Shown here piece after piece: positions 6,719-39,784 of a stretch of DNA of 64,000 nt (its first letter is position 1; every line of letters starts with the position of its first letter). A model generated the notes under the pieces. That model saw only the letters and a program-made list of their open reading frames with translations, was not told the DNA's origin and ran no database searches. A program made the position numbers and the translations under genes. This stretch comes from Paenibacillus sp. (lineage in GTDB: Bacteria; Bacillota; Bacilli; Paenibacillales; YIM-B00363). Location of the stretch: NCBI RefSeq assembly GCF_035645195.1, contig NZ_DASQNA010000006.1:1-64000 (forward strand), written 5' to 3'.

Positions 6719-7708
6719 ATGAGTTGGAAACCTATATTGTATGAATATGTAAACGGCGCGAACGTTCGAGAGGCGGAAGGGGCGGCGACCGGCGCTTTGC
6801 TGCCCTCAGGCGAAAGGAGCAGGCTGAAGCGGGTGCAGGCCGCTTACGCCGAACGCGGCGCCAGGCTGCTGGATTGCGAAACGAGACTAACTCTCCGCCG
6901 GGTCCGGGAGGGCGAACGGGAAACGGTGGCCGACATCGACATGCGGCGGACGCTGCGTTTTCGCACGCGCGGCGTCGAGCACTGCGAGGAGCGCGTCGAC
7001 CGGGAGCGGGTGACGCTGCAGCGCGGACCGGACAACGCGTGGGCCGTCGTGCGGGCGGAGCCGATTCTGCAAGAGCGGCGGACGGGCGGCGCCCCCGCTG
7101 CGGTCTTCGGGAGCGATGGCGCCGCACCTTCGCTGCGCGCCGCGCCGCTGCTGAACGAGCGGGTGCTCGTGCGCGGGTCGGCGGCGCCCTTCGAGCGAGC
7201 CGGGGCGTACGACCGCGAAGCGGCGCGCGCTTACGCGGAGCGGCACTGGAACGATCCGAATCCGGCGTTCATTCACTTCGACGTCGATTGCACGAACTAC
7301 GTCTCCCAGTGCCTCTATGCAGGGGGAGCGCCAATGAACTATACTGGGGTGAGGGAGTCGGGCTGGTGGTACCGGGGCCGTTCCGGCGGCCGCGAGCTGT
7401 GGAGCTACAGCTGGAGCGTGGCGCACGCGCTTCATTGGTATTTGTCGGCGAGCCGGCGGGATGGGCTTGCCGCGGAGACGGTTTCCTCGGCCGCGGAGCT
7501 GACGATCGGCGATGTGATTTGCTACGATTTCGACGGCGACGGCCGGTTCGAGCACAGCGTTATCGTGACCGGCGCGGACGGCGCGGGCATGCCGCTCGTC
7601 AACGCGCATACGACGAACAGCCGCGCCCGGTATTGGGATTACCGGGACTCCTACGCTTGGACGGATCGAACCGCGTATCGGTTTTTCCGCATCCGGGATG
7701 CGTTTTAG
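6719..7708 (+). CDS. Putative amidase-domain (CHAP/NlpC-like cysteine hydrolase) protein
   Basis: 329 aa. The C-terminal ~170 residues match the putative amidase domain family (Pfam Amidase_6): catalytic-type Cys191 in [10 protein letters not shown], the WWY region, His279 in [10 protein letters not shown] and the VNAHT motif (Asn295-His297). The N-terminal half is a charged domain of unknown role. No signal peptide is visible, which is common for this family in Bacillales. The ATG at 6719 has TTGGAGG 7 nt upstream. The gene lies 31 bp before ddl, so a cell-wall-related role is plausible but unproven. Confidence 0.8.
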
Positions 7709-7739
7709 CAAGCTATCAAGAGAAACGACGGAGGTTTCC

Positions 7740-13104: not shown

Positions 13105-14301
13105 ATGGAACGAACATTTGCCAAAACGATTTCGCGGGCGAAGTCGTCCGCCGTGCGGGAGATTTTGAAATTAACGCAAAATTCGAAGGTGCTCTCTTTC
13201 GCAGGCGGCTTGCCGGCGGAAGACTCGTTCCCGGCGGAGGCGATTCGCGAAGCGTACGAGCGCGTATTCGCTCGGGGAGCGGGCGCGCTGCAGTACGGGT
13301 TGACCGAAGGGGTGCTCGCGCTGCGGGAGTGGCTGACCGAGTTTCTTCGCGCGAAAGGGGTCGAGACGTCCCCGGACAAGCTGCTGGTGACGACCGGCTC
13401 GCAGCAGGCGATCGACCTCGCGTTCCGCGTCATGATCGATCCGGGCGATTATGTGCTCGTCGAGCGCCCGACGTACCTCGCCGCGCTGCAGGCGCTGTCG
13501 CTCGCGGACGGCCGGGTGGCGGAGGTCGATTCCGACGCCGAGGGGATGTTGCCGGACGATCTCGAAGCGAAGCTTCGGGAGTTTCGCCCGAAAATCGTAT
13601 ACGTGACGCCGACGTTCTCCAACCCGGGCGGCAAGCTCTGGTCGGACGAACGCCGCCGCGCGCTCGCGGAGCTCGCTCGCCGCTACGGGGCGCTCGTCAT
13701 CGAGGACGATCCGTACGGCGACATCCGGTTCGATCCGAATCTCCGCGTGACGACGCTCTACGAAACGGACGCCGCGCTCGGAGGCGAAGGCAACGCGCTG
13801 TATCTCGGCTCGTTCTCCAAGACGGTGGCGCCCGCGCTGCGCACCGGCTTCGCCGCAGGCCCCGAGGACGTTATTAGAATGATGGAGAAGGCGAAGCAGG
13901 CGTCCGACCTGCATTCGAGCGGCGTCGACCAGCTGGCGCTGTACGAGCTCGTCACCCAATGGGATCTCGCAGGGCATATTCGTTCGATCTCGGCGATGTA
14001 CCGAGAGCGGATGGAAAGGCTGACTGCGCACATGACGGGCGCTCCGTGGGAGCTGCTTCGCTGGAACCGGCCGCAGGGCGGCATGTTCCTGTGGGCGACG
14101 CTGCCCGAGTCGTGGGTCGCCGTCGATCTGTTGAAGCTCGCGGTCGAGGAAGGCGCCGCCTTCGTGCCCGGCGAACCGTTCTACGCCGGCGAGCCGGCGC
14201 GCAACACGCTGCGCATCAATTTCACACATACGCCGCCCGCGCTCGTGCCCGAAGGTCTCGAACGGCTGGCGCGCGCCATCCAGCGGTACGCCCAAGGCTA
14301 A
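13105..14301 (+). CDS. PLP-dependent aminotransferase, class I/II (LysN/ARO8-like)
   Basis: 398 aa. A fold-type I aminotransferase: FAGGLPAEDSFP near the N-terminus, TTGSQQAIDLAFRV, VYVTPTFSNPGG, the PLP lysine in LGSFSKTVAPALRTGF, and RINFTHTPP at the C-terminus. The N-terminal signature is that of the 2-aminoadipate/aromatic aminotransferase group without a GntR domain. The amino-donor specificity cannot be read from sequence. The ATG at 13105 is preferred over TTG at 13099, since GGAGGA lies 9-10 nt upstream of the ATG. Confidence 0.93.
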   Translation: MERTFAKTISRAKSSAVREILKLTQNSKVLSFAGGLPAEDSFPAEAIREAYERVFARGAGALQYGLTEGVLALREWLTEFLRAKGVETSPDKLLVTTGSQQAIDLAFRVMIDPGDYVLVERPTYLAALQALSLADGRVAEVDSDAEGMLPDDLEAKLREFRPKIVYVTPTFSNPGGKLWSDERRRALAELARRYGALVIEDDPYGDIRFDPNLRVTTLYETDAALGGEGNALYLGSFSKTVAPALRTGFAAGPEDVIRMMEKAKQASDLHSSGVDQLALYELVTQWDLAGHIRSISAMYRERMERLTAHMTGAPWELLRWNRPQGGMFLWATLPESWVAVDLLKLAVEEGAAFVPGEPFYAGEPARNTLRINFTHTPPALVPEGLERLARAIQRYAQG

Positions 14302-14316
14302 AGGCCTAGTATAGGG

Positions 14317-14364
14317 TGCCGTCCCTCCGTCAACACTGGGTAAAAAAAGACGGAGGCGACGGCA
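14317..14364 (+). promoter_or_regulatory. 15-bp hairpin sequestering the DUF2243 ribosome binding site
   Basis: TGCCGTC-CCTCCGTC (14317-14331) pairs fully with GACGGAGG-C-GACGGCA (14349-14364), leaving one bulged base and a 17-nt loop that ends in a run of seven A. The only ribosome binding site of the next gene (GGAGG, 14352-14356) is inside the 3' arm, and TTTTG follows. Confidence 0.75.
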
Positions 14365-14366
14365 TT

Positions 14367-14834
14367 TTGTCTATCGATGAAAAGAAAAAGCTATTGAATT
14401 ACGGCAGTCTGCTGCTCGGCATCGGGCTCGCGGGCGCGTTCGACGGCGTCGTGTTCCACCAGCTGCTGCAGTGGCACAGCGTGTATATGCACACGCACCG
14501 GCACGGACAAATCGTCAGCGATGGTTTGTTCCACGGCATTACGACCGTTGCGCTCGCGATCGGGGCCATCCTGCTGTGGCGCGCCGGCGCGCCGGGCGGC
14601 GTGAGACGAGGCAAGCGGCTGCTGCTCGGCGGGGCGTTGCTCGGCGCCGGCGGCTTCAACGTGATCGAGGGCCTCATCAACCATCATCTGCTGCAAATTC
14701 ATCACGTGAAGCCCGGCGATCCGAACGAGCTGCTGTACGATCTCGCGTTCCTCGCATCCGGCGCGCTGCTCGCCGCGATCGGGGAGGCGCTGAGACGCAG
14801 CGCGAACGAAGAACGGCGCGCCGCCCAGGCGTAA
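14367..14834 (+). CDS. DUF2243 family membrane protein
   Basis: 155 aa with four membrane segments (LLNYGSLLLGIGLAGAFDGV, then a second near ITTVALAIGAILLWR, LLLGGALLGAGGFNVIEGL, and LAFLASGALLAAIGEA). The conserved His-rich motifs FDGVVFHQLLQWHS and NHHLLQIHHVKPG are typical of DUF2243, whose function is unknown; the His residues suggest metal or haem binding. The TTG start at 14367 is preferred because GGAGG lies 10 nt before it and no ATG is nearby. Expression is probably controlled by the upstream hairpin. Confidence 0.85.
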   Translation: MSIDEKKKLLNYGSLLLGIGLAGAFDGVVFHQLLQWHSVYMHTHRHGQIVSDGLFHGITTVALAIGAILLWRAGAPGGVRRGKRLLLGGALLGAGGFNVIEGLINHHLLQIHHVKPGDPNELLYDLAFLASGALLAAIGEALRRSANEERRAAQA

Positions 14835-27632: not shown

Positions 27633-27739
27633 ATGCGCGGAAAAGCATCGAGCCCGTAGGGGACAGTCCATGCTGCCTGGACGGCTGTCACATACACATA
27701 TAGAGAGTGGAGGGATTTTTTCTGGAAGGGGGAAGCGCG

Positions 27740-29722
27740 ATGCTCACGGTTGGACCGATTAGCGCGGCCAACGGGTATCCGGTCTGGTACAAAGACGAGA
27801 ACGGGCTGCGTCTTCAGCTGAATACGGATCCGAACGATCCGTACAGCGGCATTACGCCGGCCGATTTGCCGAACCCGTCGGCGCCGGTGTCGTTTCCGGA
27901 CAACTTCCCGTCGGAGTCGTTTTATTTTTCGGCCGAGGCCGAAATGGAGACAGGGACCGGCGGTCGGGCGCGGCTCGTGCTGGCGCTCGAAGCGGCGTTC
28001 GTGAACGAGGTGCCGACGCCGGGGGAACAAATCGTGTTCGGACGGGTGCGCGTACGCGCGAGAGAGCTGATTCCGGGAGCGGTGTATACGGTGTATCATC
28101 CGTACGGGGTCGAGACGTTCGAGGCGGATGACGAGGGCGAGATCAATTTCACCGAGGATATCGGGGATATGGACGGAGGCGGCTTCGAGCAGGCCGGCAA
28201 CAGCCGGATACACCCGTTCCTTCGGTGGGATCCCGCGGTCGCCCCGGCGCCGCCGCCCGGGTATATCGGCGATCCGAACGTGCTTCATCGCATCGTAGGC
28301 AGCCCTGTGGGCCGGAACTATTTCCGCATCGAAGGTCCCGACATCGGCGTCGGTTCGCCGGACCGCGTGTCGGACGACGCGATCGAGACGCGGCTGTTCG
28401 CCGTGCTCGGCACAATTTCGACGATCGCCGGCGTCGATATCGTTCGCGCGTCGTATACGCGGACCGAAGCGTCCGGAGGGCTGCTCGACGTGTTCGCGTC
28501 GACCGACACGACGCCGCAGCAGCTCGTCGTGAGCGGTCCCGGTTTCGATCCGACGGTGATGCAGGGAGGTCAGGGGGAATATTTGGCGCATATCGCCTTC
28601 GATGGCGGCGTGCCGAACGAAATTACGGTGACGAACGTCGGCGACCAGCCTCCAAGTGTGAAAACGGCCGAGCCGGCCGATTTGCTGACGGGTACCGCCG
28701 TGTACGATTTGGATACGTCGGAGCTGACGGTGACGGGCTCGTCCAGCGATACGTTCGGCGCCCCGACGCTGACGGCGGTCGGCTTCGCCAGCTTCCCGTC
28801 GGGCGGAACGCTCGTGCGGACGCTGCCGGACGGGGTGCCGGCGAGCGTCGAAATCACGTCCGAAGCGGGGGGAAGCATCGAAATCCCGGTGTATGTGGAA
28901 GGCAACCCGTTCGAGCCGATCGGAGTGTCGGCGGACGCGGGGCCGGACCAGACGGTGCTGATCAACAGGACGGTAACGCTCGACGGCACGGGGTCGACCG
29001 GTCCGATCGCGTCCTACGCATGGACGCAGGTCGCCGGCCCGGCGGTCACGCTGTCGGACGCGGACGAAGCGATCGCCTCGTTCGCGGCGCCGGGGACCGC
29101 GGCTTCGCTCGAGTTCGCTTTGACCGTTACCGGTCCCGGCGGACCGTCCGTCGATACGACGGCCGTTCAAGTCGTGACGTCCGCGCCGGCGCCGATCGCG
29201 AACGCAGGTCCGGACCAGACAGTGCGGCAAGGAACCGTCGTCACCCTGCAGGGCAGCTCGAACGTGTCCCCGGTTAGCTTCGAATGGGAGCAGATCGCCG
29301 GTCCGGCCGTGACGCTGAATGGCGCGGATACGCCGAACCCGACGTTCACGTTTCCGAAGCAGCCGCTGCCGCTCCGGTTCCGTCTGACGGTCACGGGCCC
29401 CGGCGGCTCCTCGTCGGATACGGTGCAAATTTCGGCGCTGCCCGACGCATTGACGGTAACGAGGGCCGAGTACCGGATCGGCGACGCGGAGTGGCGCGTC
29501 GAAGGGACCACCGACGTACCCGGACCGGGCGTTTCGATTACGATTCATATCGGTTCCTCGACGGCGGGACCTGTGCTGGCCGTCGCGGAGGCGGACCCGC
29601 TTGGCGAGTGGGGCTACCGGGATGAAGGGGCCGCGCCGCAGCCGGACGACGCGAGAACGGTCACCCTGCGCTCCAGTTCGGGCGGACGGCTGACGGCGGT
29701 GCCGCTCACGGTTCGACAATAA
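27740..29722 (+). CDS. PKD-repeat protein of the putative spore-surface locus
   Basis: 660 aa without signal peptide, membrane segment or LPxTG. The N-terminal ~390 residues are beta-rich and not recognised. Two PKD-like domains follow at about 397-485 and 487-575, each starting with A(D/N)AGPDQTV and containing the pattern W.Q.AGPAVTL. The last ~85 residues form another beta domain. The ATG at 27740 has GAAGGGGG 8 nt upstream. It lies 21 bp before a collagen-like gene. A location on the spore or exosporium surface, secreted by mother-cell lysis rather than by Sec, is inferred from the neighbours. Confidence 0.75.
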   Translation: MLTVGPISAANGYPVWYKDENGLRLQLNTDPNDPYSGITPADLPNPSAPVSFPDNFPSESFYFSAEAEMETGTGGRARLVLALEAAFVNEVPTPGEQIVFGRVRVRARELIPGAVYTVYHPYGVETFEADDEGEINFTEDIGDMDGGGFEQAGNSRIHPFLRWDPAVAPAPPPGYIGDPNVLHRIVGSPVGRNYFRIEGPDIGVGSPDRVSDDAIETRLFAVLGTISTIAGVDIVRASYTRTEASGGLLDVFASTDTTPQQLVVSGPGFDPTVMQGGQGEYLAHIAFDGGVPNEITVTNVGDQPPSVKTAEPADLLTGTAVYDLDTSELTVTGSSSDTFGAPTLTAVGFASFPSGGTLVRTLPDGVPASVEITSEAGGSIEIPVYVEGNPFEPIGVSADAGPDQTVLINRTVTLDGTGSTGPIASYAWTQVAGPAVTLSDADEAIASFAAPGTAASLEFALTVTGPGGPSVDTTAVQVVTSAPAPIANAGPDQTVRQGTVVTLQGSSNVSPVSFEWEQIAGPAVTLNGADTPNPTFTFPKQPLPLRFRLTVTGPGGSSSDTVQISALPDALTVTRAEYRIGDAEWRVEGTTDVPGPGVSITIHIGSSTAGPVLAVAEADPLGEWGYRDEGAAPQPDDARTVTLRSSSGGRLTAVPLTVRQ

Positions 29723-29743
29723 CGAGGAGAGGTGGTGGGTGCG

Positions 29744-30259
29744 ATGACATGGAATGACTGCTGCTGCTGTTGCTGCTGCTGTTGCGGAGAAGGCGGCCGC
29801 GGTCCGCGGGGGCCGAAAGGCGATCCGGGACCGCCCGGCCCTCCCGGCCCTCCCGGCCCTCCCGGCCCCCCGGGGCCGGGAGGCGACCAAGCGTACGGGT
29901 CGGCCTTCTCGAGCTTCGCGGAGGCGGAGGCGGGAGCGCTGCCGCTGACGATCGCCGGACCGCTTCATGAGACGATCGACTTGTCGGGGCAGGGGCTCAA
30001 AGCGAATCGGGCCGGCATTTACTCGATCTCGTATCAGGTCGTCCTGGGGCAGTCCGTCCCCGGAGGGGTCGAGCTCGAGGCGCGCGTCAACGGCTCGATT
30101 GCCGTGCCTTCATCGATGTCGACGACCGGGACGGGGCTGACCGCCGGCGGGACGGCGCTGTTCTCGCTGCTTCCGGGGGACGTCGTCCGGCTGTACGCCG
30201 ATCTGGAGGGAAGCGCGGCGTTCCGGATGATTCACCTGCAGCTTGTTCAGGTTGGTTAA
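29744..30259 (+). CDS. Poly-Cys collagen-like protein (BclA-like)
   Basis: 171 aa. The N-terminus MTWND is followed by nine consecutive Cys, then about ten Gly-X-Y triplets (residues 18-46, mostly GPP) and a C-terminal C1q/TNF-like jelly-roll (NRAGIYSISYQVVLG to the end) as in the exosporium filament protein BclA. Such proteins form trimers. The Cys run could crosslink or bind metal at the anchored end. GAGGAGAGG lies 8 nt before the ATG. It follows the PKD gene closely and has its own terminator. Confidence 0.88.
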   Translation: MTWNDCCCCCCCCCGEGGRGPRGPKGDPGPPGPPGPPGPPGPPGPGGDQAYGSAFSSFAEAEAGALPLTIAGPLHETIDLSGQGLKANRAGIYSISYQVVLGQSVPGGVELEARVNGSIAVPSSMSTTGTGLTAGGTALFSLLPGDVVRLYADLEGSAAFRMIHLQLVQVG

Positions 30260-30388: not shown

Positions 30389-31003
30389 ATGGGCGAAAAA
30401 CATTCGCAGACCCGGGAGCGCCGGCTGTCCAAAAAGCTGCAGAAGCTGGCGGAACGGTACGACCGGTTGAAGAGGAACATGAAGCAGTTGAGAGGGGACG
30501 TAGTCAAGGCGATTCGGGACGACGCCGCGGACGGCGTTCTTCCGCCGGCGGAGCGGATTCTGCGAGGCGGCGAGCGCTTCGCGCCGGAGGACGATTTTCG
30601 CGTCGATCCGCGCAGCTTTTCGGCTGATCGAATCGACGGAGAACTGCATGCGGGCGGCTGCTGCATTCCCTTTTCCTCGGAAAAGTGCCTGAATCCCTTC
30701 CATTTGCGCCTTGGCCAGTTGAACCAAAACTTGAATTTTCAATTGTTCGGGTTGAAAGGCTGCCGCGTCGAGGTCGAGTACGAATGCCGCGGCGGCAACG
30801 ACGAAGTAAAGGGCGTCGTCTGCGACGTCGGAACCGATTTTATCAGCGTGCTGAAGGATAACGGCGTCGTCGCGACGATCTTGAAAGAGCGAATTTGCAA
30901 AATCGATTGGAAGGATTCCTGCTGCAATCCGTGCTCCTGCCGGTGCCACCATGGGCACGACGGCGGGCATGGCCGCTGCAAGGAGTGCGGCTGTTCGTCG
31001 TAA
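30389..31003 (+). CDS. Cys/His-rich protein with small beta-domain (spore-locus paralogue A)
   Basis: 204 aa. A basic helical N-terminus (residues 1-45) is followed by a domain with the core GCRVEVEYEC and GVVCDVGTDFISVL, ending in ICKIDW. A metal-binding-type tail follows: CCNPCSCRCHHGHDGGHG and CKECGC. The core is clearly related to the protein encoded at 37962 (GCKVEIEHEC, GKICGVGGTL, ICKVRW, CNPCHHGC). The alternation suggests a small, Sm-like beta-barrel. Not a family I can name. Location and tail suggest a spore-coat metal-binding component. Confidence 0.8.
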   Translation: MGEKHSQTRERRLSKKLQKLAERYDRLKRNMKQLRGDVVKAIRDDAADGVLPPAERILRGGERFAPEDDFRVDPRSFSADRIDGELHAGGCCIPFSSEKCLNPFHLRLGQLNQNLNFQLFGLKGCRVEVEYECRGGNDEVKGVVCDVGTDFISVLKDNGVVATILKERICKIDWKDSCCNPCSCRCHHGHDGGHGRCKECGCSS

Positions 31004-31020
31004 GTTCCGACGGAAGTCAT

Positions 31021-31047
31021 GCGGGGCGGCCGTTTCGGCCGTCCCGC
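31021..31047 (+). terminator. Terminator after the 30389 gene
   Basis: GCGGGGCGGCC / GGCCGTCCCGC stem, 5-nt loop, weak T-run. Confidence 0.65.
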
Positions 31048-31125
31048 CTTCGTTACATAGGCGCGGGCCGCCGCCCCGGCGGGCTCACGGACGTTCGCCG
31101 GCGGGAATATACAAGTAGGAGCGAA

Positions 31126-31539
31126 CTACGCGCGCACCGAATAACACAGCATGCCGAAGCTGCCGTACGTCAGCAGCGTGCAGAACGCGACGAGCAGCGC
31201 CGGGTCGTTCGCCATGACGCCGAGCATCGGACCCATCATCCCGCTCATGATGCCGCTCGTCACGCCGGTGAGCACCGTTTGGTAATCGATGAGCGCCCCG
31301 AAGGCGGCGCCGGCGAGCACGGCCAGTACCGTCGTGATGACGGACACTTCCGTGAAGGAGGCCGGGTACAACGAGCCGAGCACCGCGCCGATCGCAATGC
31401 CGAGAATGCCGCCGGACGTCATCGCCATATTCATGCCCAGATGATAGCCGATCAAAAGTCTGGATTTATGTAAAAACCAAAACGCGGCGGCCGCCGCGAG
31501 CGCGTAGCTGGACAGCAGCGCCCAAAATAAAGGGACCAC
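31126..31539 (-). CDS. Small four-segment membrane protein
   Basis: 137 aa with about four membrane segments. Notable is the Met/Gly-rich GMNMAMTSGGILGIAIGAVL after the first segment and the Met-rich TSGIMSGMMGPMLGVMANDP. Not recognised with confidence. Met-rich membrane segments are common in copper-handling proteins, but this is only suggestive. The GTG at 31539 is used, with GGGCGGGG upstream. A sigma-K-like CATACGTTA box lies 31 bp upstream. Divergent from the LR..FGETVA gene at 31623. Confidence 0.65.
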   Translation of the reverse strand: MVPLFWALLSSYALAAAAAFWFLHKSRLLIGYHLGMNMAMTSGGILGIAIGAVLGSLYPASFTEVSVITTVLAVLAGAAFGALIDYQTVLTGVTSGIMSGMMGPMLGVMANDPALLVAFCTLLTYGSFGMLCYSVRA

Positions 31540-31570
31540 GAAACCCCGCCCTTCGCCGAAGAGTTTACTC

Positions 31571-31579
31571 TAACGTATG
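31571..31579 (-). promoter_or_regulatory. Sigma-K-like -10 element
   Basis: Minus strand CATACGTTA, a full match to CATANNNTA, 31 bp before the GTG at 31539. No good -35 was identified. Confidence 0.35.
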
Positions 31580-31622
31580 AGCGGTGAGGCGGGCGTATGT
31601 GCGTCGGGAGGAGGAGCGGCAG

Positions 31623-32330
31623 ATGGAAAAGGAATACACGCATCGGCTGAGAGAGGAAAAGGGGTTTACGTCCCCTGCCAGCGGGCTTCCGTCGTTCGAG
31701 CTGAAAATGCTGCAGCAGCATATTCACGGCACGAATTTGCAGCGCCTCGGCGAGCGGCTGCCCCACCGAAAGAAAGAACTGATGCTCGTGAAGTTTCTGA
31801 AGCATCGGCGCAATCAGCCGGTGGAACTGTTTTACCGCGCGGGCGGGCGGACGCAGGGCGTCATCGGCAAAGCGGCGGGCGTCGGCCGCGATTTCGCGAT
31901 GCTGACGACGCTGTTCGAACGGCTGTGGATCCCGTACGCCGCCGTCGAGTCGGCGCAAACGCCGTTCGGCTTGCCGGAGGTATCGGGCTCGCATCATCAT
32001 ATCGCGATGGACGACAGGCTGCGAGGGCAGCTGCTGCAGCGATTCGGCGAAACGGTGGCGAATCAAGAAACGCTGCGCCGGCAGTTTTTCGAGGAGTCGC
32101 TATGGCGGCACCTGCAGCGTTGGCGCGGCGCCCGCGTTAAGGTGCTCACGGACGATGCGGCGATCATCGGCACGCTTGCGAACGTGACGGCCGGGGAGCT
32201 GGTCGTGCGCGTTCGCACGCGGCCGTTCCGCGCCGCCGCCGACGTCGCGGTCCCGCTGAAGGACGTGCGGTGCATCCGGACGGCGCGCGCGCTGGCGACG
32301 CTGCTGGCGGGGCTGAGGCGGGGGCGTTGA
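31623..32330 (+). CDS. Unknown protein with LR..FGETVA core (paralogue of the 32556-33356 product)
   Basis: 235 aa. Two beta-rich modules (about 70-120 and 165-225) flank a helical core DDRLRGQLLQRFGETVANQE. The same arrangement, with DPCLRRDLVLCFGETVACRP at the core, occurs in the gene coupled to the MnxG-like oxidase. Both modules align along their length (for example GRDFAMLTTLFERLWIPYAA against GRDFIQLQAVGERKLVPFAR). No known family is recognised. The ATG at 31623 is preceded by GGGAGGAGGAG. A role next to the oxidase on the spore surface is inferred. Confidence 0.75.
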   Translation: MEKEYTHRLREEKGFTSPASGLPSFELKMLQQHIHGTNLQRLGERLPHRKKELMLVKFLKHRRNQPVELFYRAGGRTQGVIGKAAGVGRDFAMLTTLFERLWIPYAAVESAQTPFGLPEVSGSHHHIAMDDRLRGQLLQRFGETVANQETLRRQFFEESLWRHLQRWRGARVKVLTDDAAIIGTLANVTAGELVVRVRTRPFRAAADVAVPLKDVRCIRTARALATLLAGLRRGR

Positions 32331-32423
32331 TCGGCGGCGGGGGGCGTACGCTTCGCGCGGAATGTCCGCCTCCCGGGCAAGGGCTGTGTCGGCGCCATGA
32401 TGGGTAGCGAGGCGGCAAAACAT

Positions 32424-32460
32424 GGGCAGGGTGTTCCCAAAAGAAGGGAATGCCCTGCCC
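32424..32460 (+). terminator. Terminator after the 31623 gene
   Basis: GGGCAGGG-TG-TTCCC / GGGAA-TG-CCCTGCCC stem followed by TTGTTGGTT. Confidence 0.75.
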
Positions 32461-32516
32461 TTGTTGGTTGCTCGGAGTCGGCGGATTGGCGGTTGGTTGG
32501 GCGGCGGAAATGCGAC

Positions 32517-32546
32517 GAACCCCTCCGGATAATGCCGGAGGGGTTC
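32517..32546 (-). terminator. Terminator of the mnx-like operon
   Basis: Perfect 12-bp stem GAACCCCTCCGG / CCGGAGGGGTTC with a 6-nt loop, just inside and past the stop of the last gene of the minus-strand operon. Confidence 0.7.
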
Positions 32547-32555
32547 GCTGCGCCG

Positions 32556-33356
32556 TCAATGCGGCTCTTCGTCATGCGGCTCTTCAGGATGCGGTTCTTC
32601 ATGATCGTCGTGCTTGCCTGCGACAGGCTTCATCGGCTCCGAGTGAATCGTAAGGAAGCAGATGTCCGCCAGCGCGATGTCGACACACTCGAGTCGATCG
32701 TCCTCATCCTCTTTCTTGCGCGCTTCCAGCCGGATGCGGTCTTCCTTCGCATCGACGAGCGTGCCGCGCACGAACGCGTCTTCGAGATCGTCTCGGTCGA
32801 GCCGCACCGTGACGGGGCAGCCGACGAAGGCGAGCAGCTGCAGGAAGAGCGGCGCGCCGAGAAACCGGTTGAGCAGCTCCGGTCGGCACGCCACCGTTTC
32901 GCCGAAGCAGAGAACGAGATCCCGCCGCAGGCACGGATCGATGTCGAGCAGCGGTTCGCAAATCGCGGCTCGCATTCGCGAGGCGTGTTCGTCATGCTGC
33001 AGGGAGCAGAGCCGCGCGAACGGCACGAGCTTGCGCTCCCCGACCGCCTGCAGCTGAATAAAATCTCTGCCGGCGGTTTCCAGCATGCCGACGACTTCGA
33101 CCGTGATGTGATTCTGGTCGGCGCCGCCGCAGTCGATCTCCGCTTTGACGAGCGCGCCGCACAGCGAGCGGAACCGAAGCCGAAGCTGCGTCAAGTTCTC
33201 GTCGTCCCGCGGGTTGCCGAGCGTGCGCAGCAGCCGGTTCGCTTCCTCGATGCATTCCCGCAGCCGGTCCAGTTCCTCCTGGGACAACCGGCTGTTCGGC
33301 GACCGGTAGCGGATCGTCCCCGTCGGGGACGCCTGCCCATGGACTTGCAATTTCAC
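32556..33356 (-). CDS. Oxidase-coupled protein with LR..FGETVA core and acidic/His tail
   Basis: 266 aa. Residues about 60-130 and 185-245 are beta-rich modules around the core DPCLRRDLVLCFGETVACRP; the first has VEVVGMLETAGRDFIQLQAV, the second VTVRLDRDDLEDAFVRGTLV. The C-terminal tail KHDDHEEPHPEEPHDEEPH is a repetitive His/Asp/Glu stretch suited to bind divalent metal. The GTG start overlaps the oxidase stop (GTGA) with GGAGGTGG upstream, so synthesis is coupled to the oxidase. Paralogue of the 31623 product. Unknown family; probable partner of the oxidase. Confidence 0.8.
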   Translation of the reverse strand: MKLQVHGQASPTGTIRYRSPNSRLSQEELDRLRECIEEANRLLRTLGNPRDDENLTQLRLRFRSLCGALVKAEIDCGGADQNHITVEVVGMLETAGRDFIQLQAVGERKLVPFARLCSLQHDEHASRMRAAICEPLLDIDPCLRRDLVLCFGETVACRPELLNRFLGAPLFLQLLAFVGCPVTVRLDRDDLEDAFVRGTLVDAKEDRIRLEARKKEDEDDRLECVDIALADICFLTIHSEPMKPVAGKHDDHEEPHPEEPHDEEPH

Positions 33357-36300
33357 GTTTCATCCACCTCCCCGCCAAAGCCGTCGCGAACGAGCGGCGC
33401 GAGCTCTCCGTCGCAGTCGTCGCAGCCGTCGCGGACGATCGGCTCGAGCTCCCCGCAGCAGCCGTCGCGAACGAGCGGCGCCAGCAGCGGCGTCGGTTCG
33501 CCGAGGACGCGAAGGATGCCCCACACGCCGAGCTCGATGTCCCACCGGATGAGCCCGGAACGGTACATATAATCTCCCGGTCGTTCCAGCAAGCCGCCGG
33601 CGCCGAAATCGAGGAAGAAATCGTCCGCCGTGCCGATCGAAATTTCGCCGCGGAACGACGTCGTTTCCGAATTCATGTCGTCGACCGAACGGCGCCAGTG
33701 GTGGGCGTGAACGGTGAACGTGTGCGCGCGCGCCCGGTCGGCCGGGAAGACGAACCGAATGACGGTCGGATCGCCGGCGTACGCGAGGAAGACGGGCGTC
33801 GCCGGATCGCCGTGCACTTCGGAGCTGAACACCTTCGACACGTCCGGATTGCGGAGCAAACGGTGCCGGAACCGCTCGGCCCGATAGTTGAAGCCGCGGC
33901 TGCCTTGGTCCTCGAAGTCTTCGAGTTCAGCAGGCTCCTCAGCAATTTCGAACGCCGGCTCCGGATCGAGAATGAGTCGTCCGTTCTTGTCGACGAGCCG
34001 GATGCCGTCGTGCATGGCGAGCACGAATTCCCGATGCTCCCCGACCAGCGGGTTCGAAATAATCGCCTGCGTGCCGGTGCGGATCTCCTCGCGCGTAATC
34101 GGATCGAGATACCGGGAGCCCCGCGGCTCCGCGATGAATACGCCGAACGCGCCGTGATGCCGGTGGTTGCGCAGATCCGCCATATCCCATAGATTGCAAG
34201 CGCCGAAATCCTGATCGACATACCAGAGGTACGTGATCGATTCGCCCGGGCCGATCGTCTGGTCCGGGTTGAAGCCGACCGTTGCGCCATCGGAGCCTTG
34301 CACGTCGTAAACGACCATTTGCGGATGCATCGAAATGCGGTTCGACGGCGGGAACGGCGCCTCGACCGGCACGAACGGATAGCCGTGGACGATGTCGTTG
34401 TGGAACGGCTCGAACAAGCAGTTGTGCAGCGTCACCTCGATCAGCTCGCCGACGTTGCCGCGCAGAACGAGCGGCTCCGGGTTGAGCGCGCCGGACTTGA
34501 TCGCTTCGACGTCCTCCGCCAGCGCGAATACGATGCCGTGCGGGTCGTGATCGCCGGCTTCGTTGTAAATAATCGGCGTCTGCAGAGCGAACACCTCGTA
34601 CCGGCGAAGCGGCGCGTGCCGCGGCGCGGGCGGGCAGCCCGGACCTTCGGTGCGCGGCGGCGCCATGCCTGTCGGCTGCGGCAGCACGTTCCTCCGCGGC
34701 GGCGGCGGCGACGCGCGATCCGGCAGCGGCGGAAGGTGCGGCACCTCGAATTGATACGTTCGGATGAGCCCCCAGTTCCCCAGCCACACATCTTCGATCG
34801 AACCGAAATGGTACAGCATATCGAAATCGCCGTCGCCTTCGATGGCGAACTCGAGCGTATAATGCTCGGAAACGCCGATATGCTGCATCTGGACCAAATC
34901 GGAGTCCAAATCCCGGCGCTCTTGATTCCATCGCTGCCGATGGAGGTTGAAGGCGTGCGATTCCTCGTGCGCGCCGTCGAACAGCCGGATGCGGACCGAA
35001 TCGCCGTTGTACGTCTCGAGGAGCGGCGTAACCGGATCGCCGTGGACGAACGAGCTGAAGACGTAAGCAGGGTCGCAATCCGGCTTCTTCAGCCGGAACT
35101 GCAGCGGCTCGTTCCGATAGTTGACCGCCATCACTCCTGGGTCTTCCATGGAGCTCGGGAACGGCGGCGGGTTGAGCGGACAGCCGTCCTTGTCGAACAG
35201 CAGCGCGAAGTCGTGTACGAACATCGTGATTTCCCGGAAGTCCGGAATGAGCGGGTTCGTAATGACGGCCTGCGTGCCGCTGCGAATCGGTTCGAGCGTC
35301 CGAGGATGAAGATGTCTCGACCCGCGCGCTTCGATGTTAATGCTGGCGAATACCCCGTGCAACTGATGCGAGTTCGCGAACAAATGGTCGTGAAAAAACG
35401 TGCCGCGCAGCTCGATTTCGGAAAACCATCGGTAGGTGATCGTTTGCCCGGGCAGCACCGAAGAATCGTAGTTCCATCCAACGTTGGCGCCGTCCGAGAC
35501 GAGCACGTCGAACTTGACGAAGTGTACGTGCATGCCCGACTCGTACGTCCGCTCCACTAGTTGAAACGCGTTGCCGCCGATCGTCTCCGGCAGTTTGTTC
35601 GTGTAGTGTAGGGTGACGACCTCGCCCGCGTTCGCGAAAATGACGAGCGGCTCGGGCGCCTTGCGCCCGGCGAGCACATCCTCTTCGTCCTCGGCGAGCA
35701 CGTACAAGCGGCCCTGCGGATCGTACCAGCCTTCTTTGTTGTAGACGATCGGCATTTGAATCAGCGAGATGTGGTATACGCGCTCCGGCGCATCGGGCGG
35801 TGCCGGGTTGACGAACACGGCCCCGGGCTTCGCGTTCGGATCGAACTGATTGATTTCGAGCTGCGTCGGCTCGCGGCCGCCTCGGATGCCGAGCGGCGGG
35901 CGCGGCGCTTTGAACCCGACGATTCCTGGGATAAAATTCGGAAACCCGGGACGCTCCGCCGTAGGGAGCGGGGGCAGCGGACGATCCGGCAGCGGCTGCA
36001 ACGGCTCTATGGGCGTGCCGTTCGGATAACACTGGCTGCCGTCCTGCAGCGTGTTGAAGATGCGCTGCAGCCCCCACATGCCTTCCCCGAAATGCGGGTA
36101 CAAGTGGCAGTGAATGATGACGTCGCCGAACGTGCCGTGCAGGCTGCCTGCGCCGTACAGCGGCGAGACGGTGTAGAACGTCTGCGGCCCGATCGACTGC
36201 GAGTCGATGATGTCAGAATCCTGGTCTTCGGGATCGAATTGCCATTGATGGACGTGATAATGAAACACATGCGTCTCCTGCACGCCGCCGTGAATGAGCC

Positions 36301-37117
36301 TCACCTTGACCGGGTCGCCGACATACGCTCTCAGAATCGGCGTCGACGGGTCCCCGAACACCCAAGAGTCGTGGTGGACCTCCTCGCCCTCGCAGTCCGG
36401 GCAGACGACGCCCTCTTGCACGAGGCGCATCCGGTTGCGCATCGGCTCCGCGCGGTAGTTGACGGCGTGCGTCGCTTCCGGCTGCAGCGTATGCGGGCTG
36501 ATCGGCGCGTCGCCGGTAATATCGTCCACTTCCATTTCGTCGTGGAAAAACCAGGCATACTCCCGGTACGAAGGAAGAAACGGATTATGCACGTCCGCGT
36601 ATAACCCGCTGCTGAGCGGCCCGCCCGTCACCGGGTCGGTCCACCACGAGCCGCGCGGCTCGGCGATGAGCGCGCCGAACAAGCCGTGGACGTTGCTCCC
36701 GGCTTCGGACGACAACGGGTTGCCGAGATCCGAGAAGAAATGGGTGCCTTCGAACAAAATGCTCCAGCGGTAGAGCTGCGTCCCCCCGGGCGGGCAGGGG
36801 GGCGCCGTCGAGTTGTCGTTGCAGCCGACCCAAGCGCCGTCGGACGTCTGGACGTCGTACTCGGCCCGCTGGATATGCATCGAGGCAGGGAACGGGAGCT
36901 GGTTTTCGAACAGCACCTCGACGTCGTCGCCGACGTTCGCGCGGATCGTCAGCGGCGCGACGAGATCGACGGGCGTGAACGGATGCTCCGCGACGAGCCG
37001 TCGGACGCGCTCCTCGTTCTCCTTCAGCACATACATCATCCCGTTCGGATCGTGTTCGCCGAACCGGTTCACGACGATGCGAATCGGGATGGCTACGATA
37101 TGAAAGCATCGGCGCAT
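33353..37117 (-). CDS. mnxG: Giant multicopper oxidase, MnxG-like (putative Mn(II) oxidase)
   Basis: 1254 aa, close to MnxG of marine Bacillus (about 1217 aa) and far longer than CotA-type laccases. Three tandem units, i.e. six cupredoxin-like domains (roughly 1-155, 185-355, 445-600, 625-790, 840-1000, 1030-1205). Copper ligands are complete but permuted. HxxHxH (His283, 286, 288) and HCHLYPHFGEGM (His336, Cys337, His338, His342, Met347) lie in domain 2. The two HxH motifs (His530/532, His576/578) lie in domain 3. The C-terminal half lacks a full set. No signal peptide; a Cys-containing repeat tail VRDGCCGELEPIVRDGC ends the protein. ATG with AAAGGAGG 7 nt upstream. Preceded by two small genes as in mnxEFG. 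Oxidation of Mn(II) on spores is inferred. Confidence 0.85.
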   Translation of the reverse strand: MRRCFHIVAIPIRIVVNRFGEHDPNGMMYVLKENEERVRRLVAEHPFTPVDLVAPLTIRANVGDDVEVLFENQLPFPASMHIQRAEYDVQTSDGAWVGCNDNSTAPPCPPGGTQLYRWSILFEGTHFFSDLGNPLSSEAGSNVHGLFGALIAEPRGSWWTDPVTGGPLSSGLYADVHNPFLPSYREYAWFFHDEMEVDDITGDAPISPHTLQPEATHAVNYRAEPMRNRMRLVQEGVVCPDCEGEEVHHDSWVFGDPSTPILRAYVGDPVKVRLIHGGVQETHVFHYHVHQWQFDPEDQDSDIIDSQSIGPQTFYTVSPLYGAGSLHGTFGDVIIHCHLYPHFGEGMWGLQRIFNTLQDGSQCYPNGTPIEPLQPLPDRPLPPLPTAERPGFPNFIPGIVGFKAPRPPLGIRGGREPTQLEINQFDPNAKPGAVFVNPAPPDAPERVYHISLIQMPIVYNKEGWYDPQGRLYVLAEDEEDVLAGRKAPEPLVIFANAGEVVTLHYTNKLPETIGGNAFQLVERTYESGMHVHFVKFDVLVSDGANVGWNYDSSVLPGQTITYRWFSEIELRGTFFHDHLFANSHQLHGVFASINIEARGSRHLHPRTLEPIRSGTQAVITNPLIPDFREITMFVHDFALLFDKDGCPLNPPPFPSSMEDPGVMAVNYRNEPLQFRLKKPDCDPAYVFSSFVHGDPVTPLLETYNGDSVRIRLFDGAHEESHAFNLHRQRWNQERRDLDSDLVQMQHIGVSEHYTLEFAIEGDGDFDMLYHFGSIEDVWLGNWGLIRTYQFEVPHLPPLPDRASPPPPRRNVLPQPTGMAPPRTEGPGCPPAPRHAPLRRYEVFALQTPIIYNEAGDHDPHGIVFALAEDVEAIKSGALNPEPLVLRGNVGELIEVTLHNCLFEPFHNDIVHGYPFVPVEAPFPPSNRISMHPQMVVYDVQGSDGATVGFNPDQTIGPGESITYLWYVDQDFGACNLWDMADLRNHRHHGAFGVFIAEPRGSRYLDPITREEIRTGTQAIISNPLVGEHREFVLAMHDGIRLVDKNGRLILDPEPAFEIAEEPAELEDFEDQGSRGFNYRAERFRHRLLRNPDVSKVFSSEVHGDPATPVFLAYAGDPTVIRFVFPADRARAHTFTVHAHHWRRSVDDMNSETTSFRGEISIGTADDFFLDFGAGGLLERPGDYMYRSGLIRWDIELGVWGILRVLGEPTPLLAPLVRDGCCGELEPIVRDGCDDCDGELAPLVRDGFGGEVDET

Positions 37118-37135
37118 CGCGCGGACCTCCTTTCG

Positions 37136-37450
37136 TTACGTGCGAATGTCCGGGATGCAGTGCTTCCCGTCTTCGATAAAGAACACGTGGACCGTGTCCA
37201 AATGAATGCGGAACAGTTCCCCGTCGAATTCGGCAATGTTGGTGAACTCCGTTTTCAAAAGCATAAAGTCGGCCTCGACGGCGAAAATTTCGCCCACGAA
37301 CAGGAACGGAAAAGATTCTTGCAGCAAAATGACCCGTTTGCCGATGCTTTCTTGAAACACGCGGCTGACGACGGCGTTCCGAACCGCGGTGATGTCGGCG
37401 CTTTCGCCGAGGCCGAGCTGTTTGGCGTATTTTTTGTATTCCTTATGCAT
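37136..37450 (-). CDS. MnxF-like small subunit of the oxidase complex
   Basis: 104 aa. A short helical N-terminus is followed by a beta-rich, small-barrel-like domain (GKRVILLQESFPFLFVGEIF, then ADFMLLKTEF, and IHLDTVHVFFIEDG). It lies 18 bp upstream of the giant oxidase gene with its own AAAGGAGGG site. In Bacillus sp. SG-1 and PL-12 the oxidase MnxG is isolated with two ~11-12 kDa proteins, MnxE and MnxF, encoded directly upstream; size and order match. The assignment rests on synteny and size rather than on a remembered alignment. Confidence 0.7.
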   Translation of the reverse strand: MHKEYKKYAKQLGLGESADITAVRNAVVSRVFQESIGKRVILLQESFPFLFVGEIFAVEADFMLLKTEFTNIAEFDGELFRIHLDTVHVFFIEDGKHCIPDIRT

Positions 37451-37462
37451 GGTCTCCCTCCT

Positions 37463-37756
37463 TTACGTTAACGGAATGCGCCGGTCGCAATCGAACGGGG
37501 TGAAGTGGGAGATGATTTCGATCGGAAAGCTGAGCGGCGTCGGGAAGCGGAAGAACGGGGCGTTCGTCATTTTGATGATGACCGGATGCAGCGTGATGTA
37601 GCCGTTCGTCACTTCCGATACCGTGCCGCAGAAGACGGGACGGAACGTTTGCCCCAAAATATTGAGCTGCTGCGCCGTCGTAACGATCAGCACGCATTGG
37701 CCTTTCATTTCGGCGAACATTTGATTTTCGGGCAGGATGGCCTCTTCGAAGTGCAT
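37463..37756 (-). CDS. MnxE-like small subunit of the oxidase complex
   Basis: 97 aa. Beta-rich, resembling the neighbouring 104-aa protein in layout: MKGQCVLIVTTAQQL, FRPVFCGTVSEVTNGYITLH, then FPIEIISHFTPFDC. First gene of the four-gene operon, 12 bp before the MnxF-like gene, with GAAGGAGGGG before the ATG. A sigma-K-like CATATGATA box lies 38 bp upstream. By analogy with the MnxE3F3G complex it would form the small-subunit ring with the 104-aa partner. Confidence 0.7.
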   Translation of the reverse strand: MHFEEAILPENQMFAEMKGQCVLIVTTAQQLNILGQTFRPVFCGTVSEVTNGYITLHPVIIKMTNAPFFRFPTPLSFPIEIISHFTPFDCDRRIPLT

Positions 37757-37793
37757 GGGAATCCCCTCCTTCGTTTCTGTGCTAGCGCTGGTT

Positions 37794-37802
37794 TATCATA
37801 TG
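37794..37802 (-). promoter_or_regulatory. Sigma-K-like -10 element of the mnx-like operon
   Basis: Minus strand CATATGATA matches CATANNNTA, placing the start of transcription about 30 nt before the first gene. No consensus -35 at ideal spacing was found. Confidence 0.4.
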
Positions 37803-37924
37803 GGGATTTTTGCCTGCGGACTGTACGGACGCCCCCGCCCGGTCCTTTTCCGCTGGCGCCGTTGTGCGGAAGTACATTTGCGGCGTAACGGAACAAGTAT
37901 CCTTGTCTTCGGCGTTCCGGCCGA

Positions 37925-37933
37925 CATAGGGTA
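37925..37933 (+). promoter_or_regulatory. Sigma-K-like -10 element of the His-rich gene
   Basis: CATAGGGTA matches CATANNNTA, 28 bp before the ATG at 37962. Together with 37794-37802 it would make the intergenic region a divergent late-sporulation promoter. Confidence 0.4.
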
Positions 37934-37961
37934 GTACATCACCAGGAAAGGGGGGGTCAGT

Positions 37962-38516
37962 ATGTCCAAATGCGGTTGTCATGGGCATCACGGGCATCAT
38001 GGGCATCATGGTCACCACGGCCGCCACGGCCATCATCATGGGTGTCACAGTCATTTCCATTTCCATGGCCACGGCCACCACGGCCACGGCTGCGGCCACC
38101 ACGGCCACGGCGGCTGCGGCTGCCACGGTCATTTTCCGATCCATTGCTCGCCGTTCGATCTGTGCGTCGATCGGCTGCGCGTGCGGCTGGCGCATCTGGG
38201 CGGTAACCTCGGCTTCGAGTTTCATCGCCATATCGGCTGCAAGGTAGAGATCGAGCATGAGTGCGGCGATGCCGTCGAAACGATTCAAGGGAAAATTTGC
38301 GGCGTCGGCGGCACGTTGGTGCACTTGAGGGTCAAAGACGAGGACGTCAAGGCGCGGTGCAAGAAAAAGGAAGAGCAGCACGTCGTCAGCATTCCGATTC
38401 ATCATATTTGCAAAGTAAGATGGCTGCAGAACAAGTGCAATCCGTGCCACCACGGTTGCAAATGCGGCTGCTGCAAGGACCGTCATCACGACGACGACGA
38501 TCACGAGGATTCGTAA
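37962..38516 (+). CDS. His/Cys/Gly-rich protein with small beta-domain (spore-locus paralogue B)
   Basis: 184 aa. Residues 1-65 are roughly half His, as HGHHGHHGHHGHHGRHGHHH and similar runs, with interspersed Cys. A domain related to the 30389 product follows (GCKVEIEHEC, GKICGVGGTLVHLRV, HHICKVRW), then CNPCHHGCKCGCCKDRHHDD. The ligand density points to copper, manganese or zinc binding. Divergent from the mnxE-like gene, with AAAGGGGGGG before the ATG. Unknown family; possible metal store or coat component for the oxidase. Confidence 0.82.
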   Translation: MSKCGCHGHHGHHGHHGHHGRHGHHHGCHSHFHFHGHGHHGHGCGHHGHGGCGCHGHFPIHCSPFDLCVDRLRVRLAHLGGNLGFEFHRHIGCKVEIEHECGDAVETIQGKICGVGGTLVHLRVKDEDVKARCKKKEEQHVVSIPIHHICKVRWLQNKCNPCHHGCKCGCCKDRHHDDDDHEDS

Positions 38517-38523
38517 CTCTCTT

Positions 38524-38554
38524 GCTCTTCTTCTCCGGAAGGAGAGCTTTTTTT
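38524..38554 (+). terminator. Terminator after the His-rich gene
   Basis: GCTCTTCTTC / GAAGGAGAGC stem, followed by seven T. Confidence 0.85.
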
Positions 38555-38644
38555 TGCGGCTTGGGGTAGGCGTTCGCCTGCGGAGCGGGCGGGAGCCGTG
38601 AATATACTGGAGTGGTTTCGAATCGAAAAGAAAGGACGATGCTC

Positions 38645-39784
38645 ATGGAAGTGCTCGTCGTCATGCCGGAGCAGCTGCCGGTGCCGCCGATTTTGGGCGG
38701 GTCGGTCGAGTCGTGCACGCATAACGTGTTTCGCCGTATGGCGCGCACCGACACCGTCCGGATGATCAGCGTCGCTCATCCGCGTCTGCCGGCCGTCAGC
38801 CGGCTGGAGGGAGGCCGATATACGATTCACCGCATTCCTTACGCCAATCGGAGGAAGGCGTACTTGCGCGCCGCGGTGCGCAAAGCGAAGGCGCTGTCGT
38901 TCGATATTGTGCAAATCGAAAATCGGCCGACGTTCGTCGCCGCGTTCCGGAAGGCGTTCCCCCGGGCGACGATCGTATTGTCGCTGCATTCGCTGACGTT
39001 CATGTCGAAGCTCACGAAGAAAGAAGCGTACCGGGTGCTGCGGCAGACGGACGCCGTCGTGACGGTTGTATCGTTCCTCGCGGATGCGATGCGGAAGAAG
39101 TATCCGAAATACGCGCACAAATTTCATTCCGCCATCCTCGGCGTCGACACGGATCAATTCCGGCCGCGGTCGGACGAATACCGGCAGCGGCTTCGTAGGA
39201 AGTGGAAGGTGGACGGCGGGTTTAACGTGCTGTTCGTCGGACGGATCGTGCCGAAGAAAGGGCTGCACACGCTCGTGCGCGCGGTCGCGGAGGTGAAGCG
39301 CGCCGTTCCGCGGACGCGGCTCATCGCCGTCGGCGCGTCGTGGCCGGGGCGCAGCCGGCAAACCCCTTATATGCGCAAAGTACGGCGCCTGTCGGAGCGG
39401 CTGAAGGTGCCGATCCGGTTCACGGGCTACATCCCGCCGGCGAAGGTACATCAGGCGTATGCGCTGGGGGACGTTTTCGTTTGCCCGACGATGTACAAGG
39501 AAGGGTTCGCCACCGTCAATTCGGAGGCGATGGCGTCCGGGGTGCCCGTCGTCGCTTCCGACCGGGGCGGCATTCGCGAGGTGATCGAGCACGGGCGGAC
39601 GGGGCTGCTCGTGAAGGCGTACCGCCGTCCGAGCGCGTTCGCCGGCTCTATCCTGCGGCTGCGCCGGGAGCCGCAGACGGCGCAGCGCCTCGCGGACGCG
39701 GCGAGACGGACGGCGGTGGAGCGGCTCAGCTGGAACCGCACCGTCGAGACGCTGCGGGCGTATTACGCGAAGTGGCGCGCGTAA
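38645..39784 (+). CDS. GT4 glycosyltransferase, CotSA/YtcC-like spore-coat type
   Basis: 379 aa, close to the length of B. subtilis CotSA. GT-B fold, family GT4: the N-terminal MPEQLPVPPILGGSVESC is typical of CotSA/YtcC proteins; FVGRIVPKKGLHTLVRA and YKEGFATVNSEAMASGVPVV with the nucleotide-sugar E-x7-E motif follow. It would glycosylate coat or exosporium components, possibly the collagen-like protein. The ATG at 38645 is chosen since AAAGGA lies 8 nt upstream; ATG at 38639 is too close to it. Confidence 0.88.
   Translation: MEVLVVMPEQLPVPPILGGSVESCTHNVFRRMARTDTVRMISVAHPRLPAVSRLEGGRYTIHRIPYANRRKAYLRAAVRKAKALSFDIVQIENRPTFVAAFRKAFPRATIVLSLHSLTFMSKLTKKEAYRVLRQTDAVVTVVSFLADAMRKKYPKYAHKFHSAILGVDTDQFRPRSDEYRQRLRRKWKVDGGFNVLFVGRIVPKKGLHTLVRAVAEVKRAVPRTRLIAVGASWPGRSRQTPYMRKVRRLSERLKVPIRFTGYIPPAKVHQAYALGDVFVCPTMYKEGFATVNSEAMASGVPVVASDRGGIREVIEHGRTGLLVKAYRRPSAFAGSILRLRREPQTAQRLADAARRTAVERLSWNRTVETLRAYYAKWRA

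What the first reader, a model, noticed from the sequence alone, without database searches (positions are those of the whole stretch)
30389..39784. Expanded Mnx-type metal-oxidation locus on the spore surface
A mnxE-mnxF-mnxG-like operon is joined by a fourth, translationally coupled gene (32556-33356) and surrounded by a paralogue of that gene (31623), two related Cys/His-rich proteins (30389, 37962), a Met-rich small membrane protein (31126), collagen-like and PKD proteins and a CotSA-like glycosyltransferase. Seen: gene order, overlaps, paralogy, metal-ligand-rich tails. Known: MnxG with MnxE/F oxidises Mn(II) to Mn oxide on spores of marine Bacillus. Inferred: the extra proteins are accessory subunits, metal stores or anchors of the complex. 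I know of no description of this combination.
Basis: partly seen in the sequence, partly recalled or inferred. Interest (0 to 1): 0.85.

Follow-up and report, generated by a model that had tools for sequence, protein, structure and literature searches.

The report
Second-type Mnx manganese oxidase gene cluster
This is a complete gene cluster for the enzyme that some spore-forming bacteria use to turn dissolved manganese into mineral on their spores; it belongs to a separate branch of that enzyme family and carries companion genes that are almost never found without the enzyme, so they are good candidates for missing parts of the mineral-making layer.

Summary
The window encodes full-length relatives of MnxE, MnxF and MnxG, the subunits of the solved Mn oxidase 9bxa, with all twelve expected MnxG copper ligands conserved. 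A fourth gene overlaps mnxG by 4 nt. The combination is not unique to this window: the classic Mn oxidiser Bacillus SG-1 has the same set. The "paralogue" at 31623 is MnxD. The small membrane protein is MnxA/B-like. The coupled gene (here "H"), the Cys/His proteins (here "CH") and a PKD/collagen pair all have orthologues beside SG-1 mnx. The CotSA-like glycosyltransferase is not part of it.

New here: (1) the window's MnxG lies in a second deep clade (type II) whose loci lack the Sco-like MnxC and the second MnxA/B copy and usually overlap H with mnxG. (2) CH is found only in mnxG-bearing genomes (8 of 9, against 0 of 290), and so is the PKD protein (5 of 9, 0 of 290), even when megabases away. 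(3) H (two barrels) and CH (one) are predicted LSm-like barrels resembling MnxE, MnxF and spore-coat GerQ. (4) SigmaK-type -10 boxes mark the transcription units.

Mn oxidation by type II, and the roles of H, CH and PKD/collagen, remain untested.

The parts
37463..37756 (-). mnxE (97 aa), copper-binding ring subunit
   Evidence: phmmer to MnxE chain 9bxa_B, E 4e-29
37136..37450 (-). mnxF (104 aa), ring subunit
   Evidence: phmmer to MnxF chain 9bxa_E, E 1e-9
33353..37117 (-). mnxG (1254 aa), six-domain multicopper oxidase, type II clade
   Evidence: phmmer to 9bxa_A 1630 bits over 1-1206; tree; Cu ligands conserved
32556..33356 (-). gene H (266 aa), coupled to mnxG by a 4-nt overlap; two predicted LSm-like barrels (69-121, 181-238)
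   Evidence: orthologue of SG-1 gene 13676-14497 directly after mnxG; AF2 pLDDT 84; Foldseek GerQ, MnxF, Hfq
31584..32330 (+). mnxD orthologue (235 aa from ATG 31623; GTG 31584 possible)
   Evidence: groups with SG-1 mnxD, split from H with SH-aLRT 100; hhalign to H 99.9%
31126..31539 (-). mnxA/B-like small membrane protein (single copy)
   Evidence: homologous to SG-1 7052-7477 and 7437-7955, E 1e-25 and 5e-13
30389..31003 (+). CH1 (204 aa), Cys/His-rich tail plus LSm-like core
   Evidence: CH family; in mnxG-bearing genomes only
37962..38516 (+). CH2 (184 aa), His-rich N-terminal tail plus LSm-like core (81-154)
   Evidence: AF2 core pLDDT mostly about 90-96; Foldseek GerQ, MnxF, MnxE prob 1.00
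29732..30259 (+). collagen-like protein, Cys-rich N-terminus, BclA_C-like C-terminus (below cut-off)
   Evidence: always next to the PKD gene
27707..29722 (+). PKD-domain protein (671 aa)
   Evidence: PF22352 PKD; co-occurs with mnxG even when unlinked
37794..37802 (-). sigmaK-type -10 box CATATGATA, 46 bp upstream of mnxE
37925..37933 (+). sigmaK-type -10 box CATAGGGTA, 37 bp upstream of CH2
31571..31579 (-). sigmaK-type promoter AC-N15-CATACGTTA upstream of the mnxA/B-like gene
32424..32460 (.). 15-bp stem hairpin between the convergent ends of mnxD and H, probably a shared terminator

Best explanation
An intact, chromosomal Mnx-type metal (most likely Mn(II)) oxidase locus of a spore former, of a second clade (type II) not found distinguished in the literature held here. 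MnxG, seated on an MnxE/MnxF ring, oxidises Mn(II) at the spore surface and passes electrons to O2 through the type 1 and trinuclear copper sites. Shown: gene content, orthology, conserved copper ligands, co-occurrence, sigmaK-type -10 boxes, predicted LSm-like folds. Inferred: mother-cell late-sporulation expression; that H and MnxD (double barrels) and CH (single barrel with a His/Cys metal-binding tail) assemble on or next to the MnxE/F ring as scaffold and metal feeder; that the PKD and collagen-like pair builds the surface fibre that holds the enzyme or mineral.
For: MnxG, E and F match the solved Mnx complex 9bxa (MnxG over residues 1-1206, E and F over most of their length). T1 ligands C337, H283, H342 and M347 and the trinuclear His pairs 286/288, 336/338, 530/532 and 576/578 align with SG-1 or PL-12 MnxG; H342 equals H340, the residue mutated in 9bxa. 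Gene set matches SG-1. Co-occurrence: CH in 8 of 9 mnxG+ and 0 of 290 mnxG- Bacilli, own genome excluded; PKD in 5 of 9 and 0 of 290, also when about 2 Mb away. SigmaK -10 boxes enriched before transcription-unit-first genes (CH 34 of 67 against 3.8 expected), not before internal mnxF and mnxG (4 of 155 against 6). LSm-like folds.
Against: No activity or expression data. Type II has 20 positions fixed differently from type I, and several metal-ligand-capable residues conserved in one type only (H987, H988, E1069 in type II; H1135, E1111, H492 in type I), so the substrate could differ. It lacks MnxC. H, CH and PKD/collagen have no tested role, and mnxEFG alone suffice for activity in PL-12 (PMC5622069). 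CH is missing from one mnxG+ genome (G210) and PKD from several.
Confidence: 0.72

Rival explanations
1. Type II MnxG is a diverged oxidase with another main substrate (Fe(II), Cu(I) or phenolic compounds), used for metal detoxification or coat cross-linking like CotA; Mn oxidation is minor or absent.
For: Deep separate clade (SH-aLRT 100, branch 0.38) with fixed differences, several at metal-ligand-type residues; MnxC and one MnxA/B copy lost; some species carry both types (L018/L040, L021/L042, L037/L088, L059/L081), which suggests division of labour.
Against: 68-75% identity inside the clade and about 59-60% to SG-1 MnxG over full length; all T1 and trinuclear ligands kept; MnxE, F, D and CH partners kept.
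Confidence: 0.2
2. H, CH and PKD/collagen are general spore-coat or exosporium structural genes that only happen to lie near mnx.
For: The LSm-like fold is shared with the general coat protein GerQ; collagen-like proteins are common in exosporia; the Mnx core needs only EFG in vitro (PMC5622069).
Against: Near-exclusive presence in mnxG-bearing genomes across orders, also when unlinked; GerQ by contrast is in 40 of 41 genomes.
Confidence: 0.15
3. The cluster is a decaying or non-expressed horizontal acquisition.
For: No mnxG in five congeners and two family members searched; nearest tree neighbours are from other families and even Clostridia.
Against: All frames intact, ligands conserved, composition of mnxG (63% G+C) equals the flanks, sigmaK-type boxes and terminator in place.
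Confidence: 0.05

Closest known systems
Mnx operon (mnxA-G) of marine Bacillus SG-1 / PL-12; structure 9bxa (Mnx complex)
   Same: MnxE, MnxF, MnxG, MnxD and MnxA/B homologues; copper ligands; H, CH and PKD/collagen orthologues also flank SG-1 mnx
   Different: Type II MnxG clade (about 59% identity to SG-1); no MnxC; one MnxA/B copy; mnxD and mnxA/B in separate units; H overlaps mnxG; two CH copies
Pseudomonas-type MnxG (NCBIfam NF041487, 1894 positions)
   Same: Large multicopper oxidase implicated in Mn oxidation; partial match 305 bits
   Different: Far below its 3100-bit cut-off; much longer protein; not a member of that family
GerQ spore-coat protein (8zra) and LSm/Hfq ring proteins
   Same: Predicted small beta-barrel fold of H and CH
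   Different: No Pfam GerQ match; profile comparison only 30-36% for H and D and about 0 for CH; GerQ is nearly universal in these genomes, H and CH are mnxG-restricted
BclA-type exosporium collagen-like proteins
   Same: GXX repeats and a weak BclA_C match
   Different: Cys-rich N-terminus; below the Pfam cut-off; paired with a PKD protein

Membership tests
Bacillus-type Mnx complex | Full-length six-domain MnxG | tested here: met
   1630 bits to 9bxa_A, residues 1-1206
Bacillus-type Mnx complex | T1 and trinuclear copper ligands | tested here: met
   Cys/His ligands at least 93% conserved in both clades; M347 aligned in 9bxa and invariant in the type II alignment
Bacillus-type Mnx complex | MnxE and MnxF encoded directly before mnxG | tested here: met
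Bacillus-type Mnx complex | mnxA-D upstream in one operon, including Sco-like MnxC | tested here: not met
   mnxD and one mnxA/B-like gene are present in other units; no MnxC in any of 23 type II loci against 35 of 51 type I. Lowers 'classic mnx operon', not 'Mnx complex'
Bacillus-type Mnx complex | Late mother-cell (sigmaK) expression | tested here: inconclusive
   sigmaK-type -10 boxes at three unit starts and enriched family-wide; expression not measured
Bacillus-type Mnx complex | Mn(II) to Mn oxide activity | not testable with these tools
   needs spores or purified enzyme
Pseudomonas-type MnxG (NF041487) | score above equivalog cut-off | tested here: not met
   305 against 3100 bits
LSm/Hfq-like small barrel (H, CH) | short helix plus five-strand barrel | tested here: met
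   predicted models and structure matches; shared fold only
LSm/Hfq-like small barrel (H, CH) | ring oligomer | not testable with these tools
   oligomer not modelled
GerQ (PF09671) | Pfam model match | tested here: not met
   no PF09671 match at E up to 1 for H or CH
BclA exosporium collagen | BclA_C domain above cut-off | tested here: not met
   19.3 against 38 bits

The most novel reading that the evidence does not exclude
The Mnx oxidase is only the catalytic core of a larger spore-surface biomineralisation machine: a set of LSm-like small barrels (MnxE, MnxF, MnxD, H, CH) forms stacked rings that scaffold and feed metal to MnxG, and the PKD/collagen pair forms the fibre on which the oxide grows. 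Type II is a separate, differently organised version of it.
Probability: 0.3. Interest if true: 0.78.

Novelty: new variant of a known kind. Interest (0 to 1): 0.55.

Why it matters
Why spores make manganese oxide, and with which parts beyond MnxEFG, is open. The H, CH and PKD/collagen genes are nearly exclusive to mnxG-bearing genomes, so the parts list of the oxide-forming spore layer becomes testable by simple deletions in laboratory Mn oxidisers. The type II clade extends a biogeochemically important enzyme to many more spore formers, including Clostridia. The predicted common fold of H, CH, MnxE/F and GerQ suggests how such a layer could be built.

Tried and rejected
A classic mnx operon in unchanged form: rejected (no MnxC, rearranged units). 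Pseudomonas-type MnxG: rejected. CotSA-like glycosyltransferase as a member: rejected (terminator between, no co-conservation). Outer neighbours: no co-conservation seen for NagA and PHP; NagB and the histidine kinase were not tested. Sequence homology of H, D and CH to GerQ by profile comparison: inconclusive to negative; the link rests on fold. First attempt to separate D and H by iterated profiles mixed them; a tree resolved it. Searches of the held literature for mnxH found nothing, and none of the papers listed for 9BXA is about Mnx; the library lacks most subscription journals, so absence there is weak evidence of novelty.

Full report
Observation. mnxE (37463-37756), mnxF (37136-37450), mnxG (33353-37117) and a fourth gene, here called H (32556-33356), run on the minus strand. 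mnxG and H overlap by 4 nt, GTGA. Convergent to them lies 31584/31623-32330 (+), with a 15-pair hairpin at 32424-32460 between the two. The small membrane gene 31126-31539 (-) is divergent from it. CH1 (30389-31003) and CH2 (37962-38516) are Cys/His-rich relatives of each other. A collagen-like gene and a PKD gene lie beyond CH1.

Identity of the core. phmmer against solved structures gives 9bxa, the PL-12 Mnx complex: MnxG 1630 bits over residues 1-1206, MnxE E 4e-29, MnxF E 1e-9. The copper ligands (numbering window/SG-1) C337/335, H283/281, H342/340 and M347 for type 1 and the four His pairs of the trinuclear site are conserved (M347; the rest). The assignment of ligands to sites follows the general multicopper oxidase motifs (established knowledge). 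The PDB title 'Mnx H340A' fits the type 1 role of H340.

The extra genes are not peculiar to this window. In Bacillus SG-1 (L079) the order is collagen, PKD, two small membrane genes, a SCO1/SenC gene, mnxD, mnxE, mnxF, mnxG, an H orthologue starting 15 nt after the mnxG stop codon, and a Cys/His-rich gene on the other strand. The names mnxA, B and C for SG-1 are assigned from gene order and my memory of the seven-gene operon; mnxDEFG as a contiguous construct is documented (PMC5622069). A tree of 140 H/D proteins splits cleanly (SH-aLRT 100): the window's coupled gene sits with SG-1's downstream gene, and its 'paralogue' with SG-1 mnxD.

Two kinds of MnxG. A tree of 87 MnxG proteins has two deep clades: 26 including the window (type II) and 61 including SG-1 (type I). 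Among loci with enough flank, MnxC is found in 0 of 23 type II and 35 of 51 type I; two MnxA/B copies in 0 of 23 and 38 of 51; H overlaps mnxG in 14 of 16 type II cases, whereas in type I 24 of 27 are separated by 12-96 nt. Four species carry both types. Twenty positions are fixed differently.

Co-occurrence. In 101 genomes drawn mostly from the same order, mnxG occurs in 4. CH occurs in the same 4 and no others; H in the same 4 plus one weak hit elsewhere; PKD in 2 of the 4 and no others. In 300 Bacilli mnxG occurs in 10, CH in 9 of these and nowhere else, PKD in 6 of these and nowhere else. Excluding the own genome the chance probabilities are about 6e-15 and 7e-9, without correction for relatedness: several positives are congeneric. 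In G051, G268 and G334 the PKD gene is megabases from mnxG, yet present. In all seven PKD loci checked a collagen-like gene with a GXX stretch lies beside it. GerQ, a general coat protein, is in 40 of 41 genomes.

Regulation. CATANNNTA, the sigmaK -10 consensus (established knowledge), occurs 13 times in the window on both strands; three lie 37-46 bp before mnxE, CH2 and the mnxA/B-like gene (Poisson P about 8e-6 with regions chosen after the fact). Across loci it is enriched before first genes of units (CH 34 of 67 against 3.8 expected; mnxD 18 of 47 against 3.2; mnxE 13 of 31 against 2.2; mnxA/B 18 of 72 against 3.5) and not before internal mnxF and mnxG (4 of 155 against about 6). The -35 element is convincing only at the mnxA/B-like gene.

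Structure. AlphaFold2 predicts H as two five-strand barrels (pLDDT 84) and CH2 as one barrel after a disordered His-rich tail (core mostly about 90-96). Foldseek gives GerQ and MnxF (H), and GerQ, MnxF and MnxE (CH2), each with probability 1.00, with Hfq/LSm proteins. VIA-align puts GerQ at Z 7.2 (rmsd 2.5, 73 aligned) for H and Z 10.0 (rmsd 2.7, 73 aligned) for CH2, the latter rank 1 but tied with Hfq. Profile comparison links H with D (99.9%), both H halves with CH (97%, 94%) and E with F (88%); unrelated families from the same loci score 4% or less. A shared fold does not show a shared function; small barrels are common.

Mechanism. Most likely MnxG on an MnxE/F ring oxidises Mn(II) at the spore surface. 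H, being coupled to mnxG, is the best candidate for a further subunit or assembly factor. CH (median 14% Cys plus His) is a candidate metal-binding feeder, and PKD/collagen a surface anchor or mineral scaffold. These last steps are inference.

Verdict. It is a new variant of a known system: a type II Mnx cluster with mnx-restricted companion genes that appear not to have been named in the literature available here.

Noticed in passing
L073 10001-13693; L022 10001-13708: Type II MnxG with H and CH in Tissierella creatinophila and a Clostridiales MAG, lineages generally taken as anaerobic; an O2-consuming oxidase there is odd. The Tissierella flanks are 29.5% G+C, so the contig looks genuine.
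   Followed up: partly
L029, L031, L039, L040, L041: Tandem or nearby duplicated mnxG genes in several type I loci.
   Followed up: no
L075: mnxG (shortened ORF, 1110 aa) with mnxE and mnxF on a contig titled plasmid pGIAK2 of Bacillaceae bacterium JMAK1, without H or CH.
   Followed up: no
window 33353-37117 (residues 987, 988, 1069, 943, 770): Type II-specific H987, H988, E1069, D943 and H770 against type I-specific H1135, E1111 and H492: possible second metal or substrate site that differs between the clades.
   Followed up: partly
window 32556-33356: The H model aligns best to ORF137 of Pyrobaculum spherical virus (2x4j, Z 12.5, rmsd 2.5, 109 residues), clearly above the other rows; meaning unknown.
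   Followed up: no
G000 C14:90519-93147: The genome's own gerQ and its best SCO1/SenC gene lie about 2 kb apart, away from the mnx locus; the SCO protein could replace the missing MnxC.
   Followed up: no
G334 C1:2336744-2340386: mnxG split into two overlapping ORFs in this genome, a frameshift or sequencing error.
   Followed up: no
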